Of a stretch of DNA of 21,459 nt, positions 945 to 10,245 are shown piece by piece. Source of the stretch: a virus; IMG/VR virus record IMGVR_UViG_3300044695_004066, positions 1-21,459 of that record, one strand, 5' to 3'. The notes under the pieces were generated by a model. That model searched no databases and was not told where the DNA came from. It was given only the letters and a program-made list of their open reading frames with translations. How positions within the stretch are numbered: position 1 is the stretch's first letter; each line of letters opens with the position of its first letter. Made by a program: the position numbers and the translations under genes.

Positions 945-1340
945 ATGGCTACAGATGGTACAGATTTTGCAGCATATGGGCTTCCAGATCCTAGAGATCA
1001 ATATGGAAACCGAGACTTTGTTAGTCCGTCCTACCCCAGCAAGATAGATGAGGCGTTCGTTGCAGATGTCTGGCGGATTATGGATCAAGCTGGCAACCTA
1101 TTGGTACGTAAGCACCACGACTACGGCCCAAAGAACATTGCTCATTCACCAGGTGGACCACTTAATGGTCTGCGTGTACGTATGTGGGACAAGATAGCTC
1201 GCATTAATAACCTTGTTGATTCTAACGTTAGCCCTAGCAACGAGTCATTGCGTGATTCATTCTTAGACTTACTTAACTACTCAGCGATTGCAATGATGGT
1301 ACTCGATGGCGTATGGCCAGAAGTACAGGATGATGACTGA
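945..1340 (+). CDS. DUF1599 / Nmad1-like (nucleotide modification associated) protein
   Basis: This 131-aa protein matches the pattern I know for the DUF1599 family, also called nucleotide modification associated domain 1. It has HDYGPKNI at 58-65, NGLRVRMWDKIARINNL at 74-90 and ESLRDSFLDLLNYSAIA at 100-116, then a GVWPE end. Family members are small, helical and common in phages, often near nucleotide-metabolism or DNA-modification genes; their reaction is not firmly established. It starts seven bases after the primase gene, and its stop overlaps the start of the sigma-like gene, so it belongs to the same transcript. The ribosome site before ATG 945 is weak. The family call is good; the role in base modification is inference. 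Confidence 0.75.
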   Translation: MATDGTDFAAYGLPDPRDQYGNRDFVSPSYPSKIDEAFVADVWRIMDQAGNLLVRKHHDYGPKNIAHSPGGPLNGLRVRMWDKIARINNLVDSNVSPSNESLRDSFLDLLNYSAIAMMVLDGVWPEVQDDD

Positions 1341-1965
1341 GTTACATAAATCTATCTATGACATAGCACCTAGTGTTGCAAGCGCAATAGCACGTCGCTT
1401 CCGTGGCTATGTAGAGAGAGATGATGTACTGCAAGAGTGTCTTGCTTGGGCATTAACACGTGGTAAACAGTTTGATGAGATGCTTAATGAACCCAATGCA
1501 GTCCAACGTGTTATCAATGAGAAGCGTATTGCTTGGCAGATGAAGCGTTCTGCTGAACGTTATGCTCGCAAAGAAAAGGCATCTAAGTCTGGCTATCGAA
1601 CAGGTGATGAAGCATTCTACGATACAGCTATGATCGCACAGGTCTTGCCTCACGTGATTGCATCCATTGTTGATGACACAGTATTAGAGCAGGCTCAGAA
1701 CCTTATCAACGATGGTTCACCTAAGAAGCCTAGCGTTCCAGCAGAAGGTGGAAACCTGCTTGCTACCCTGATTGATGTCAAGCGTTCCTATCTCAAGTTA
1801 GAAGTAGAAGACCAGACCATACTTCGTATGCGCTACCACGAAGGACTTACCTTGCAACAAGTAGCACATTTATTGGAATGTGCTATCTCTACTGCAGATC
1901 GTAGATGCACCAGCGCATTACGTAAGGTACAGAATGGCTTAGGCGGTGACAACCCGTGGCAATGA
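1330..1965 (+). CDS. sigma-70-like RNA polymerase sigma factor
   Basis: This 211-aa protein has the layout of a compact sigma factor. A region-2-like segment at about 14-45 contains IARRFRGYVERDDVLQECLAWAL. A linker at about 80-150 is charged and variable. A region-4 helix-turn-helix at 156-200 reads LEVEDQTILRMRYHEGLTLQQVAHLL and continues into ADRRCTSALRKVQ. Such a protein could redirect host RNA polymerase to phage promoters. The start is uncertain: ATG 1330 or 1333 is preferred to ATG 1306, because the upstream gene is then overlapped by only 8-11 bases. The nuclease-like gene follows with an ATGA overlap at 1962-1965. It could instead be a non-sigma DNA-binding protein that borrowed region 4. 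Confidence 0.7.
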   Translation: MMTELHKSIYDIAPSVASAIARRFRGYVERDDVLQECLAWALTRGKQFDEMLNEPNAVQRVINEKRIAWQMKRSAERYARKEKASKSGYRTGDEAFYDTAMIAQVLPHVIASIVDDTVLEQAQNLINDGSPKKPSVPAEGGNLLATLIDVKRSYLKLEVEDQTILRMRYHEGLTLQQVAHLLECAISTADRRCTSALRKVQNGLGGDNPWQ

Positions 1966-5970: not shown

Positions 5971-6060
5971 TTTTTACCCCTTCCAAGGTAGGTTATTCCT
6001 AGTGCTTAGCCCTAGGCCATTCCTTACGGTATAGCTACCGTAAAGAATAGTCAAGCTCTA
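5971..6060 (-). repeat. intergenic hairpin element, copy 1
   Basis: This gap shares three blocks with 6707-6796: TACCCCTTCCAAGGT (5975-5989), TAGCCCTAGGCCA (6007-6019) and TAGTCAAGCTCTA (6048-6060). Between the last two lies a 13-bp stem, 6019-6031 with 6036-6048, with a TAGC loop and one G-U in the leftward RNA. Read leftward, the upstream stop TAG opens the element, then TTGACT, the hairpin, a CCTAGGGCTA block and the ribosome site. TTGACT followed after 17 bases by TACCGT could be a promoter overlapping the hairpin. Confidence 0.6.
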
Positions 6061-6420
6061 AGCTACTTCACGCGCTAGGCGTGGCGCATTCTCTCCCAGC
6101 TCTTCAGTGTCTGCAATATCAAACACATATCGCCAGCTGAAGCGCATTTTATCCTCTCCCGCTTCAGTGGTATAGCTGCCAGTAGGCACGAGAATAGCTG
6201 CGCCGCTGCTCCCCTTCTTTACGCTTCTTCCTGCGCTCTTCCAATCGTGGAAGCCAGCGCATTTCGTAGCTGTAGGCTTCTGCCATAGAATTAGAAGCCC
6301 ATTCCTCACGCTGTAATCTTCAAGCAGCGTAGTAGGTACTACAGTGCCGCGCTCTTCCATAATCTCCACTGCGTCAGCTAGTGAGCGTATAAATGCGGCC
6401 TTCTCTTCCTTGCTTCTCAT
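6058..6420 (-). CDS. ArdC N-terminal-domain (antirestriction-type) protein
   Basis: This 120-aa protein matches the N-terminal domain of ArdC antirestriction proteins, which binds single-stranded DNA and can help incoming DNA escape restriction. Diagnostic parts are YSVRNGLLILWQKPTATKCA (about 36-55), GFHDWKSAGRSVKKGSSGAA (56-75), a strand ILVP, and RYVFDIADTE near 96-105. Full ArdC proteins also have a metallopeptidase domain with HExxH; it is absent here, and the protein stops just after the first domain. It lies between two copies of the hairpin element with one partner gene. A role in countering host defence is a fair inference but untested. Confidence 0.8.
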   Translation of the reverse strand: MRSKEEKAAFIRSLADAVEIMEERGTVVPTTLLEDYSVRNGLLILWQKPTATKCAGFHDWKSAGRSVKKGSSGAAILVPTGSYTTEAGEDKMRFSWRYVFDIADTEELGENAPRLAREVA

Positions 6421-7691: not shown

Positions 7692-8070
7692 GCTAATAGC
7701 TGCGATATTAGGTAACAATATGGTAACGATTAGCTGAGAATTAGCTGTGAGATCTTAGCCCTAGAAGCTAGAAGCTGGCAGCTGTAAAGCTGCGCCAGCT
7801 GAGATAGCTGCGCCAGCTGGCCGCTGGGATAGGCCGCGAGAATAGCTAGCTAGCTGTCAAGCTGTAGGCATTTATTATATTAGGGTATAGAGACATATAG
7901 GGGAGAGGGTAGCCGATAGGGTAGCCTACCCAGCGGGAAATGCTATACGGTATAGTACAGCTGCAATAGCTGTAATAGCTGCAGCAGCTGCGCCAGCTGC
8001 GGCGAGCAGACCCCTAGGTGTTAAGTTTAGTGCGTGTGTAGTGTATGTACCCTCTACAGATATATTTCCT

Positions 8071-8090
8071 AAAGTGAACCCAGTCACTTA
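8071..8090. promoter_or_regulatory. operator-like dyad 1
   Basis: AAAGTGAACCCAGTCACTTA contains the dyad AAGTGA/TCACTT with six bases between. It is closely related to the site at 8117-8136, 46 bases downstream, and lies between the divergent operons. It probably binds a dimeric phage or host regulator. Confidence 0.55.
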
Positions 8091-8116: not shown

Positions 8117-8136
8117 AAAGTGACCTTAGTCACTTT
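8117..8136. promoter_or_regulatory. operator-like dyad 2
   Basis: AAAGTGAC (8117-8124) and GTCACTTT (8129-8136) form a perfect 8-bp inverted repeat around CTTA. Together with dyad 1 it makes a two-site operator. It overlaps the -35 of the possible rightward promoter, so binding there would repress. Confidence 0.6.
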
Positions 8137-8149
8137 CCGTAAATACTTT
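8120..8149 (+). promoter_or_regulatory. possible rightward (late) promoter
   Basis: GTGACC at 8120-8125 and TACTTT at 8144-8149, 18 bases apart, use the same -10 as the leftward promoter. The -35 match is only partial. Its position just inside dyad 2 and ahead of the terminase leader is what makes it likely. Confidence 0.35.
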
Positions 8150-8157
8150 ATACCATA

Positions 8158-8184
8158 GGCAGGAAATGAGCTTTTTTTCCTGCC
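8158..8184. terminator. stem-loop with 9-bp stem downstream of the operators
   Basis: GGCAGGAAA (8158-8166) pairs perfectly with TTTCCTGCC (8176-8184) over a nine-base loop that contains part of a seven-T run. TTATAT follows. It could stop transcription in either direction or be the first stem of the late leader. Confidence 0.4.
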
Positions 8185-8340
8185 TTATATACAGTAGGGG
8201 CGGTAGTTATGATAGCCCCGTACAGCCTCGCTTCGGTCACCCTACGCGAGTCCCTAGGACGAGCCCTGACTTACCCCTCGCTACGCTGTAGCTTGCTCGG
8301 GAGTTTACGGTATCGGTGGTTGTGCAAAGCACAACTTTTA
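8185..8340 (+). other. GC-rich structured leader upstream of the terminase
   Basis: This stretch has several short stems: GGGGC/GCCCC (8197-8201 with 8215-8219), CTCGC/GCGAG (8227-8231 with 8246-8250), GTCC/GGAC (8250-8253 with 8257-8260) and GCTAC/GTAGC (8280-8284 with 8288-8292). It ends at an intrinsic terminator. Composition differs clearly from the neighbouring sequence. A leader RNA, a small RNA or a packaging (cos/pac) segment are all possible. Confidence 0.4.
8319..8339 (+). terminator. intrinsic terminator before the terminase gene
   Basis: GTTGTGC (8319-8325), AAA, GCACAAC (8329-8335), then TTTT. A 7-bp perfect stem with a three-base loop and T-run on the plus strand. It lies 47 bases before the terminase start, so late transcription must either pass it or start after it. 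Confidence 0.6.
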
Positions 8341-8385
8341 ATCGGGTGTAGTCTATCTATAACCCAATGAGATACTGGAGATCCA

Positions 8386-10245
8386 ATGGCTGAGAACTCA
8401 GCAGATATAGCAAAGCGAATCATCCTAGGATGTGTAGCTGAGGGTATGACCATTGAACAAGCCTGCCTATCGGCTGGTAAGTCTATGAAGACATACGAGT
8501 ACTACCGACGCACCGACAAGATCTTTACAGACAAGATTGATAGAACTCGCCTTGGGCTAAAGGATAAGTCCTTCGCGGCAGGCGATGTCCACGACATCTC
8601 ATTTGCCGAGTTCCGCCAACGCTTTCTAAACTCCAAGACCTTCCCCCACCAGCAGAACCTAGTGGATATGATCGAAGGCGTAGAACCTACCTGGCTGCAC
8701 CCTTCAATGAAGTTCGAGCAGGGTCTGGCCAATAACCGTATCCTTATTAACATTCCGCCAAACCACGCCAAGTCCATCACAATCACAGTGGACTACGTAA
8801 CCTGGCAGGTAGCCCGTAATCCTAACTTTCGTGTGCTGATTGTTTCCCAGACTCAGCAACTTGCCGCCGACTTTCTCTACGCCATCAAGCAGCGTTTGAC
8901 TCACCCTATGTATGAGAACCTTCAAAATGCTTATGCTGCTGGCGTAGGGTTTAACTCTAAGTCTGCTTCCTGGCAGGCTACCCGTATCACCTTTGGTGAT
9001 GAGCTTCGTGAATCCTCTGAGAAGGATCCTAATATCGAAGCCGTTGGTATCGGCGGTCAGATCTACGGCAAACGTGCCGATATGATTATCGTAGACGATG
9101 CTGTCACTCTTAAGAACGCCAATGAGTTTGAACGCCAGATCAAGTGGCTGACCCAGGACGTACGTTCTCGTCTTAACCCTACTGGTAAATTAATTATCAT
9201 TGGAACCCGCGTTGCTGCCGTTGACCTCTATCGAGAACTGCGTAACCCAGATCGCTATCCAGGTGGCCTAGTTCCTTGGAAGTACCTGGCTATGCCAGCA
9301 CTACTTGAAACAGATGAGGACCCTGACAAGTGGGTTACCCTGTGGCCAGCATCCGATGCTCCATTTGATGGGCAAGAAGAATCAGATCTTAATGAGGATG
9401 GACTATACCCAAGGTGGAATGGTCGTAACCTCTATAACGAACGTCAAGCAATGGACGCATCTACTTGGGCGCTGGTCTACCAGCAACAAGATATTTCAGA
9501 TGATGCCATATTCGATCCAGTATGTGTGAGAGGTTCCATTGATGGTATGCGTAAGGCGGGTAGGTTGGTTCCTGGTCATCCAGGCCATCCACGCGATGTC
9601 AATGGCTTTTCTTTTATTTGCGGTCTTGACCCCGCTATGGTTGGTGATACAGCCGCCGTTTGTTACGCTATTGATCGGGTTACTCATAAACGTTATATCG
9701 TTGATGCTATTAAGATCACTCGCCCTACGCCTGCTCAAATCCGTCAGCTAATCTTTGATTGGACTTCCCTCTATAGTCCTAGCGAATGGATTGTGGAGAA
9801 GAATGCGTTTCAATCTTTCCTTACGCAAGACGAAGGCATCCGTGCCAACCTTGCAAGCCGAGGCGTGTTACTGCGAGAGCATCACACGGGTAACAACAAG
9901 TGGGACTCAGGTTTCGGTGTTGCGTCTATGTCAACATTGTTTGGCACCAAGCAACACGATGGAAAGCACCACCGCGATAATTTAATTCATATGCCTAGTG
10001 ACCAAACTGAAAACATTAAGGCAATGATTGAACAATTAATTACTTGGTCCCCAACGACCAAGGGTAAAACAGATATGGTAATGGCGTTGTGGTTCTGTGA
10101 GATCCGCGCCCGTGAAATGCTTAACCAAGGTATCCACGCTGTACACCATATGAAAAACCCATTCCTGTCTCGTTATGAACAGGGCAAGCGAACAGTCATT
10201 AACATTGATGAACTGCTCGCAGAGAAAGATCGCACATTTATCTAA
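8386..10245 (+). CDS. terL: terminase large subunit with N-terminal HTH-like extension
   Basis: This 619-aa protein is the DNA-packaging motor and nuclease. The ATPase part has a variant Walker A, IPPNHAKS (123-130), a Walker B, MIIVDDA (233-239), and a coupling motif GTR (273-275). The nuclease part has D415 (CGLDPAM), E471 (WIVEKNAF) and D563 (KTDMVMAL), the usual acidic triad. Residues about 7-57 look like a helix-turn-helix (AEGMTIEQACLSAGKSMKTY) as found in small terminases, and no separate small-terminase gene is seen. ATG 8386 has GGAG five bases upstream. The portal gene follows at ten bases. Confidence 0.93.
   Translation: MAENSADIAKRIILGCVAEGMTIEQACLSAGKSMKTYEYYRRTDKIFTDKIDRTRLGLKDKSFAAGDVHDISFAEFRQRFLNSKTFPHQQNLVDMIEGVEPTWLHPSMKFEQGLANNRILINIPPNHAKSITITVDYVTWQVARNPNFRVLIVSQTQQLAADFLYAIKQRLTHPMYENLQNAYAAGVGFNSKSASWQATRITFGDELRESSEKDPNIEAVGIGGQIYGKRADMIIVDDAVTLKNANEFERQIKWLTQDVRSRLNPTGKLIIIGTRVAAVDLYRELRNPDRYPGGLVPWKYLAMPALLETDEDPDKWVTLWPASDAPFDGQEESDLNEDGLYPRWNGRNLYNERQAMDASTWALVYQQQDISDDAIFDPVCVRGSIDGMRKAGRLVPGHPGHPRDVNGFSFICGLDPAMVGDTAAVCYAIDRVTHKRYIVDAIKITRPTPAQIRQLIFDWTSLYSPSEWIVEKNAFQSFLTQDEGIRANLASRGVLLREHHTGNNKWDSGFGVASMSTLFGTKQHDGKHHRDNLIHMPSDQTENIKAMIEQLITWSPTTKGKTDMVMALWFCEIRAREMLNQGIHAVHHMKNPFLSRYEQGKRTVINIDELLAEKDRTFI

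What the first reader, a model, noticed from the sequence alone, without database searches (positions are those of the whole stretch)
8185..8385. Structured leader ending in an intrinsic terminator ahead of the terminase
The 200 bp before the terminase are GC-rich, hold several small stems and finish with a clear terminator (8319-8339), followed by only 46 bases before the start codon. If the rightward promoter lies at 8120-8149, most transcripts would be a ~190-nt RNA unless something overcomes the terminator. That suggests antitermination, attenuation or a free small RNA. A cos or pac site is also possible.
Basis: partly seen in the sequence, partly recalled or inferred. Interest (0 to 1): 0.5.

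Follow-up and report, generated by a model that had tools for sequence, protein, structure and literature searches.

The report
Structured leader RNA before terminase gene
Viruses of freshwater actinobacteria carry, just before the gene for their DNA-packaging enzyme, a conserved folded RNA leader that matched no catalogued RNA family and may control how the late genes are read.

Summary
The structured leader is real; reading its end as a working terminator fits only part of the family. In relatives (187 distinct contexts) the stretch matching window 8177-8357 is a folded element with strong compensatory change (113 double-change cells against 22 in shuffles). No convincing Rfam match. It lies directly upstream of terL in 181 of 187; the other six contigs end within 289 bases.
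The hairpin plus TTTT (8319-8339) exists and compensates, but only 48 of 187 relatives have such a hairpin (5 are cut short). A block after the T-run fits a loose pattern in 172 of 187, so the element seems to run through it. tRNA genes or ORFs sometimes separate it from terL, which argues against a switch on terL translation.
The supposed promoter at 8120-8149 begins with a GTGA-N6-TCAC (CRP-type) palindrome; the likely -10 is TTATATA at 8185-8191.
Seven of seven sampled Streptomyces relatives have 253-276-bp terminal repeats ending about 0.4 kb before terL, so a genome end probably lies near 8050, outside the interval.
Best reading: a new family of cis-acting late-operon leader RNA; the elongation-control role is inferred.

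The parts
8197..8357 (+). Conserved structured leader RNA (start about 8197 is predicted; conserved through about 8357)
   Evidence: Covariance model R1 (134 positions, not reaching the terminator) found it in 86 of 86 sources searched; covariation against shuffles and slid controls; one copy in each of 22 large records, which were chosen because they hold the element or terL.
8177..8200 (+). Near-invariant block TTCCTGCCTTATATACAGTAGGGG: likely -10 (8185-8191) and start
   Evidence: Anchor pattern in 270 of 312 loci, 187 distinct contexts. GGGAAA-like block at the same spacing (-16 or -17) in 175 of 182. Only copy in the window. Start site inferred.
8158..8184 (.). Inverted repeat GGCAGGAAA..TTTCCTGCC: -35 or operator region, or a 5' hairpin
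   Evidence: Seen; constant spacing to the -10 favours promoter DNA.
8197..8219 (+). Stem P2 (GGGGC/GCCCC in the window; GUAAAAC/GUUUUAC, GCAAAGC/GCUUUGC, GCAAAUG/CAUUUGC elsewhere)
   Evidence: 9 distinct stems located by flanking sequence only (elements with GGGA..GACC flanks, not the window's own type): 58 of 63 positions Watson-Crick.
8227..8250 (+). Stem P3 CUCGC/GCGAG
   Evidence: Helix 3 in other subgroups (the window's own row was not placed in this helix); in close relatives both arms are invariant; other arms.
8250..8260 (+). Stem P4 GUCCCUAGGAC
   Evidence: GGCC/GGCC, GCCC/GGGC, AUCCC/GGGAU seen by eye in relatives; helix 4 (2 pairs).
8270..8301 (+). Sequence-conserved core CUUACCCCUC..CGCUGU..CUCGGG
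   Evidence: Second DNA pattern; top pair of the mutual-information scan lies here (columns 200-218: G-C, C-G, U-A).
8319..8339 (+). Terminator-like hairpin plus TTTT, in the window's subgroup and some others
   Evidence: 48 of 187 distinct elements have a hairpin of 6 bp or more directly before TTTT: 14 arm-plus-loop forms, 6 arm pairs, which compensate.
8336..8357 (+). Block conserved past the T-run (TTTTAATCGGGTGTAGTCTATC; TTTTAGTGGGGATAGGTCTATC elsewhere)
   Evidence: A loose pattern for it matches in 172 of 187 distinct elements.
8120..8133 (.). CRP-type palindrome GTGA-N6-TCAC
   Evidence: 142 of 171 contexts; 158 sites in 160-bp windows against 3 in 1.14 Mb elsewhere.
8074..8087 (.). 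Second CRP-type palindrome
   Evidence: position -103 from the anchor, 16 sites.
8044..8056 (.). Position that may correspond to the terminal-repeat boundary of Streptomyces relatives (inferred)
   Evidence: 7 of 7 Beephvirinae records have exact 253-276-bp terminal repeats ending ..GGGGAGTG/AGTCCC or a near match; homology of position in the window is by motif order only.
7959..8001 (.). 9-base tandem repeats (AGCTGnnnn) where 67 of 154 relatives have DnaA boxes
8386..10245 (+). terL, large terminase
   Evidence: phrog_38, E 2.5e-63.
1306..1965 (+). Phage sigma factor, candidate reader of the promoter
   Evidence: Pfam Sigma70_r4 above cut-off; phrog_354; homologue in 21 of 22 large records.

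Best explanation
8197-8385 is the 5' leader of the rightward (late) transcript, and 8197-8357 is a conserved, structured element of actinobacteriophages. Shown: the conserved fold, single copy, fixed place upstream of terL, and CRP-type sites and a promoter-like block in front. Inferred: that it is transcribed at all and on this strand; that RNA polymerase, probably carrying the phage sigma factor, starts near 8197; that the leader folds as it emerges and acts in cis on the elongating polymerase, so that the long run of genes that follows is read processively (or, in subgroups with the hairpin and T-run, so that passage through it is controlled). It would work like HK022 put or the lambda late leader with its terminator, but it is not a member of either.
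For: Covariation: 16 of 21 pairs with double change against 7.3 (sd 1.5) shuffled; 113 double-change cells against 22.4 (sd 7.2); slid controls at most 26. P2 from flanks only: 58 of 63 positions Watson-Crick over 9 distinct stems. One copy in 22 of 22 large records, just upstream of and co-oriented with terL in 21. Starts right after a constant promoter-like block. ORFs of 80 aa or more run mostly rightward for about 33 kb from terL in the closed genome G017, with 4 leftward ones listed among them. tRNA (6 of 181) or ORFs of 45 aa or more (15 of 181) lie between element and terL, so it is not tied to terL translation. Conserved block continues past the T-run.
Against: No transcript data at all. 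Folding energy is not unusual on the plus strand and is relatively better on the minus strand. Wobble asymmetry is 64 G-U to 13 A-C in the model-fitted alignment, which leans to the model; a test without the model gave 39 to 27 over all stems (shuffled means 19.6 and 16.6) and 27 to 23 over distinct contexts, no clear answer. A single transcription unit is not shown. A candidate antiterminator pairing in the window (8220-8227 with 8318-8325) is not kept, by eye, in L001, L002, L005 and L007.
Confidence: 0.4

Rival explanations
1. Attenuator giving a free small RNA of about 140 nt: most transcripts stop at 8339 unless a phage factor lets them pass, as with lambda 6S RNA and Q (recalled).
For: Hairpin 8319-8335 plus TTTT; compensating hairpins in 48 of 187 elements.
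Against: 139 of 187 showed none (5 cut short), yet keep the leader, and the block after the T-run is found in 172. The hairpin is absent from the minimum-energy fold of 8197-8339. No Q-like family among the proteins scanned: 14 of the window and 32 of 44 ORFs of G017.
Confidence: 0.2
2. Packaging-linked element: a paused polymerase or the RNA itself helps the terminase at the genome end, as the T7 concatemer junction or phi29 pRNA do (both recalled).
For: Next to terL in 181 of 187. In 7 of 7 sampled Beephvirinae the terminal repeat ends about 0.4 kb before terL. No small terminase subunit matched in 30 of the 44 G017 ORFs scanned with PHROGs.
Against: No convincing Rfam match. Stem lengths vary widely. 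Small terminase subunits are easily missed by profiles, and 14 ORFs were not scanned with PHROGs. Genome ends in the window's own group are not mapped; the E7 record shows no end repeat.
Confidence: 0.17
3. Replication element: a primer RNA or DNA hairpins of an origin.
For: TTATCCACA boxes: 159 in 122,845 bases upstream against 7 in 1,040,889 bases elsewhere; 67 of 154 contexts have one or more. Inverted repeats could act as DNA; strand of action not proven.
Against: 87 of 154 contexts lack the boxes (the window too) but keep the element. The element is co-oriented with terL and begins at a promoter-like block.
Confidence: 0.1
4. Protein-binding or stabilising 5' UTR of the late mRNA (protein autoregulation, protection from RNases), without effect on elongation.
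For: Sequence-conserved core 8270-8301 could be a protein site.
Against: Where a tRNA gene lies between (6 of 181), tRNA processing would separate it from the mRNA.
Confidence: 0.13

Closest known systems
HK022 put RNA
   Same: Promoter-proximal structured phage RNA (putL lies just downstream of PL; PMC9378689, passages read).
   Different: put is about 70 nt with two stem-loops; this is about 160 nt with at least four conserved stems. No sequence comparison with put was made beyond Rfam, and activity is untested.
Lambda PR'-6S RNA-tR' late leader (recalled)
   Same: Late promoter, short leader, terminator-like hairpin, then late genes.
   Different: The element here is conserved past the T-run; 139 of 187 relatives showed no such hairpin; no Q-like family among the proteins scanned.
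Leader ahead of terL in Streptomyces phages of Beephvirinae (WRightOn, Manuel, Immanuel3, FlowerPower and others)
   Same: TerL 43% and sigma factor 27% identity; CRP-type sites in 9 of 9; TATATATA block in 8 of 10 aligned; hairpins with double change at 14 of 38 predicted pairs.
   Different: Sequence and hairpins differ; covariance model R1 does not recognise it (best 5.4 bits). RNAalifold's net covariation term there is +0.91, not favourable, and no shuffle control was run.
'Ca. Planktophila' phages LanE43-AprE7 and AprF5 (PMC10202952; first of two parts of the text read)
   Same: Similar genome size, sigma factor (29%), TerL 46% identity; inverted repeats upstream of terL seen by eye.
   Different: No R1 match above 8.3 bits; AT-rich leader; no end repeat in the E7 record.
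GOLLD and ROOL phage RNAs (listing; otherwise recalled)
   Same: Large structured RNAs of phages; GOLLD also from lakes.
   Different: No Rfam hit at E up to 1 in the window; up to 3 in six relatives only two tRNAs and one weak hit far below its cut-off.

Membership tests
Structured RNA with conserved fold | Compensatory base-pair changes beyond chance | tested here: met
   0 of 500 shuffles reach the observed value on all five measures; slid controls far lower. Rows are related by descent, the alignment was fitted to the model, and two chance-like hits were left in.
Structured RNA with conserved fold | Acts as RNA of the plus strand | tested here: inconclusive
   64 G-U to 13 A-C in the fitted alignment; 27 to 23 without the model; minus strand folds relatively better.
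Any family in Rfam 15 | Covariance-model match | tested here: not met
   Window: none at E up to 1. Six relatives at E up to 3: two tRNAs and one weak hit at 17.8 bits against a cut-off of 100.
Intrinsic terminator | GC-containing hairpin followed at once by a T-run | tested here: met
   Window 8319-8339; but only four T, and only 48 of 187 relatives.
Intrinsic terminator | RNA 3' ends there | not testable with these tools
   No transcript data.
HK022 put RNA | About 70 nt, two stem-loops | tested here: not met
   Element about 160 nt, at least four conserved stems; put size from PMC9378689 passages.
HK022 put RNA | Antitermination through the beta' zinc-binding domain without a protein factor | not testable with these tools
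   Needs transcription assays.
phi29 pRNA | Rfam pRNA match | tested here: not met
   No match (that Rfam holds such a family is recalled).
cos or pac site within 8185-8385 | Genome ends at one fixed base there | tested here: inconclusive
   17 of 80 contigs start 167-629 bases before terL, at scattered bases. Repeat boundaries of 7 Streptomyces relatives lie about 0.4 kb before terL.
CRP/GlxR-type operator | GTGA-N6-TCAC at fixed place | tested here: met
   142 of 171 contexts. Binding not tested; GlxR motif GTG-N8-CAC quoted in PMC10033298 (passages).

The most novel reading that the evidence does not exclude
The leader is a packaging-linked RNA outside the phi29 group: transcribed beside the genome terminus, it (or the polymerase paused on it) recruits or times the terminase of phages in which no small terminase subunit has been found so far, so that late transcription and the start of packaging are coupled.
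Probability: 0.1. Interest if true: 0.88.

Novelty: new variant of a known kind. Interest (0 to 1): 0.62.

Why it matters
It sits where CRP-type sites, in many relatives a DnaA-box cluster, and in Streptomyces relatives the genome end meet, in phages with their own sigma factor. If it controls elongation it would be a put-like system outside the lambdoid phages; if it works in packaging it would be rarer still. Streptomyces relatives with a similar layout are already cultured, so it can be tested.

Tried and rejected
Folding energy against shuffles as proof of structure: not significant on the plus strand. Terminator scan: no excess. cos at the leader: contig starts not at one base. Coding explanation: single-base gaps in close relatives. 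Riboswitch-like control of terL translation: tRNA or ORF insertions between. Antiterminator 8220-8227 with 8318-8325: not kept, by eye, in four close relatives looked at. Strand proof from wobble without a model: 27 to 23, no answer. terL relatives in bacterial genomes: one genome-contig scan with the window's TerL; 7 stretches matched a pattern, none confirmed by tblastn; the element itself was not sought there. Similar DNA in named phages: short chance-like matches, none. R1 in five Streptomyces and Planktophila stretches: no convincing match. G013, where element and terL are on opposite strands, looks like a chimeric contig end and was not used as evidence. Two weak hits (L065, L201) stayed in the alignment counted. 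The model R1 was searched in 86 of the 312 loci held, chosen by me to span the diversity. Print: searches showed no paper on this element in their listings; only four papers were opened: PMC10202952 (part 1 of 2), and passages of PMC2864571, PMC9378689 and PMC10033298. This open-licence library misses most subscription papers.

Full report
What was checked. The hairpin at 8319-8335 with TTTT at 8336-8339 is present and lies 46 bases before terL. Taken alone, the window does not prove structure: folding energies are ordinary on the plus strand, better on the minus strand, and the terminator scan shows no excess. In the minimum-energy fold of 8197-8339 the hairpin is not formed, in that of 8197-8385 it is. 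Rfam gave nothing at E up to 1.

Relatives. terL has many relatives in IMG/VR (80 best loci kept and). Of 312 loci then held, some from the same contig, 270 carry the block TTYCTGCCTTATAYAYAGTARGG, one copy each, in 187 distinct contexts. The nearest sequenced isolates in the phage collection are 'Ca. Planktophila' phages LanE43-AprE7 and AprF5 (TerL 46%), then Streptomyces phages of Beephvirinae (TerL 43%). A closed relative, G017 (39,434 bases with a 127-base end overlap), has portal, major head, tail-fibre, endolysin, helicase and primase matches.

Structure. A covariance model made from nine sequences found the element in 86 of 86 sources searched, of 312 loci held; the weakest was E 3.3e-07, plus two chance-like hits. 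On the resulting alignment (85 distinct rows) 94.7% of cells pair (84.4% shuffled), 16 of 21 pairs show double changes (7.3 shuffled), 113 cells show double changes (22.4 shuffled), with 0 of 500 shuffles as high; slid controls reach at most 26 cells. The alignment is fitted to the model and the rows share descent, so I also located P2 by flanking sequence only, in the subgroups with GGGA..GACC flanks: 9 distinct stems, 58 of 63 positions Watson-Crick, no G-U. The top pair of a mutual-information scan (columns 200-218: G-C, C-G, U-A) was not in the model, so further helices probably exist. The window's own subgroup fits the model less well (54 bits for L081), and its P2 and P3 were not placed by the model; there the stems rest on the sequence and on comparison by eye.

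Where it sits. The element precedes terL in 181 of 187 distinct contexts; the other six have at most 289 bases downstream. In the set found by DNA pattern, independent of terL, it is 115 of 120, the rest having at most 217 bases. In 22 large records, chosen from loci already fetched, there is one copy each and all have terL; in 21 the element is just upstream and co-oriented, and G013 has a chimeric-looking end. The distance from anchor to terL runs from 207 to 815 bases. A tRNA-Arg gene lies between in 6 of 181 and an ORF of 45 aa or more in 15 of 181.

The terminator. A hairpin of at least 6 bp directly before TTTT occurs in 48 of 187 elements, in 14 arm-plus-loop forms with 6 arm pairs that compensate, the window's subgroup among them. 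In 139 none was found; 5 of the 187 are cut short. The block after it (TTTTAGTGGGGATAGNTCTATC and like forms) matches a loose pattern in 172 of 187. A free RNA that ends there is thus not the common design.

In front of the leader. GTGA-N6-TCAC occurs in 142 of 171 contexts within 160 bases: 158 sites, against 3 in 1,141,509 bases elsewhere in the same loci. The contexts are related, so this is not 142 independent events. A GGGAAA-like block and TTATATA stand at constant spacing (175 of 182) and occur once in the window. The phage sigma factor (1306-1965) has a homologue in 21 of 22 large records; that it reads this promoter is inference. Further upstream, TTATCCACA boxes are strongly concentrated: 159 in 122,845 bases against 7 in 1,040,889; 67 of 154 contexts. 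The window has 9-base AGCTG repeats at that place instead.

Streptomyces relatives. Nine Beephvirinae leaders were examined for sites: all 9 have at least one fitting GTGA-N6-[TA]CAC and 7 of 9 have two. Eight aligned leaders give 38 predicted pairs, 14 with double change, but the net covariation term is +0.91 and no shuffle control was run, so this is weaker than for the freshwater set. All 7 records whose two ends were compared have exact terminal repeats of 253-276 bases; the repeat ends at GGGGAGTG/AGTCCC or a near match, about 0.4 kb before terL. By order of motifs the same boundary in the window would be near 8044-8056. This is inference; E7 showed no end repeat in its record.

Reading. 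That this is a conserved structured element upstream of terL I hold at about 0.93. That it acts in cis on elongation of the late operon I hold at 0.4, because it begins at the promoter-like block, is single-copy, leads a long run of mostly rightward genes (about 33 kb in G017, with 4 leftward ORFs listed among them), and is separable from terL. Which strand acts is not proven independently: 64 G-U to 13 A-C in the fitted alignment, but 27 to 23 in a test without the model. Attenuation, packaging, replication and plain mRNA protection remain open.

Noticed in passing
8074-8087 and 8120-8133; same place in relatives: CRP/GlxR-type palindromes GTGA-N6-TCAC at fixed positions before the late promoter in 142 of 171 contexts, almost absent elsewhere in these loci; no CRP-like family among the 14 window proteins and 32 of 44 G017 ORFs scanned.
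   Followed up: partly
Relatives, about 175-260 bases upstream of the anchor (e.g. L019, L075, L111): Clusters of 2-5 perfect DnaA boxes TTATCCACA in 64 of 154 contexts; the window and others have different repeats there.
   Followed up: partly
7959-8001 and 7788-7819: 9-base tandem repeats AGCTGnnnn in a hypervariable stretch, possibly iteron-like.
   Followed up: partly
Streptomyces Beephvirinae records, e.g. NC_048684 1-264 and 44958-45221: Exact 253-276-bp direct terminal repeats in 7 of 7 records examined, ending at a palindrome-like motif.
   Followed up: yes
L009, L019, L035, L166, L223, L245: tRNA-Arg(ACG) gene inserted between the leader and terL; also in L037 and L069.
   Followed up: partly
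1306-1965: Phage sigma factor, with a homologue in 21 of 22 large relatives.
   Followed up: partly
L057 record G007 (49,744 bases): Two terL matches of different identity (90% and 80%), so probably a chimeric contig.
   Followed up: no
6058-6420: Small protein with an ArdC-type anti-restriction domain.
   Followed up: no
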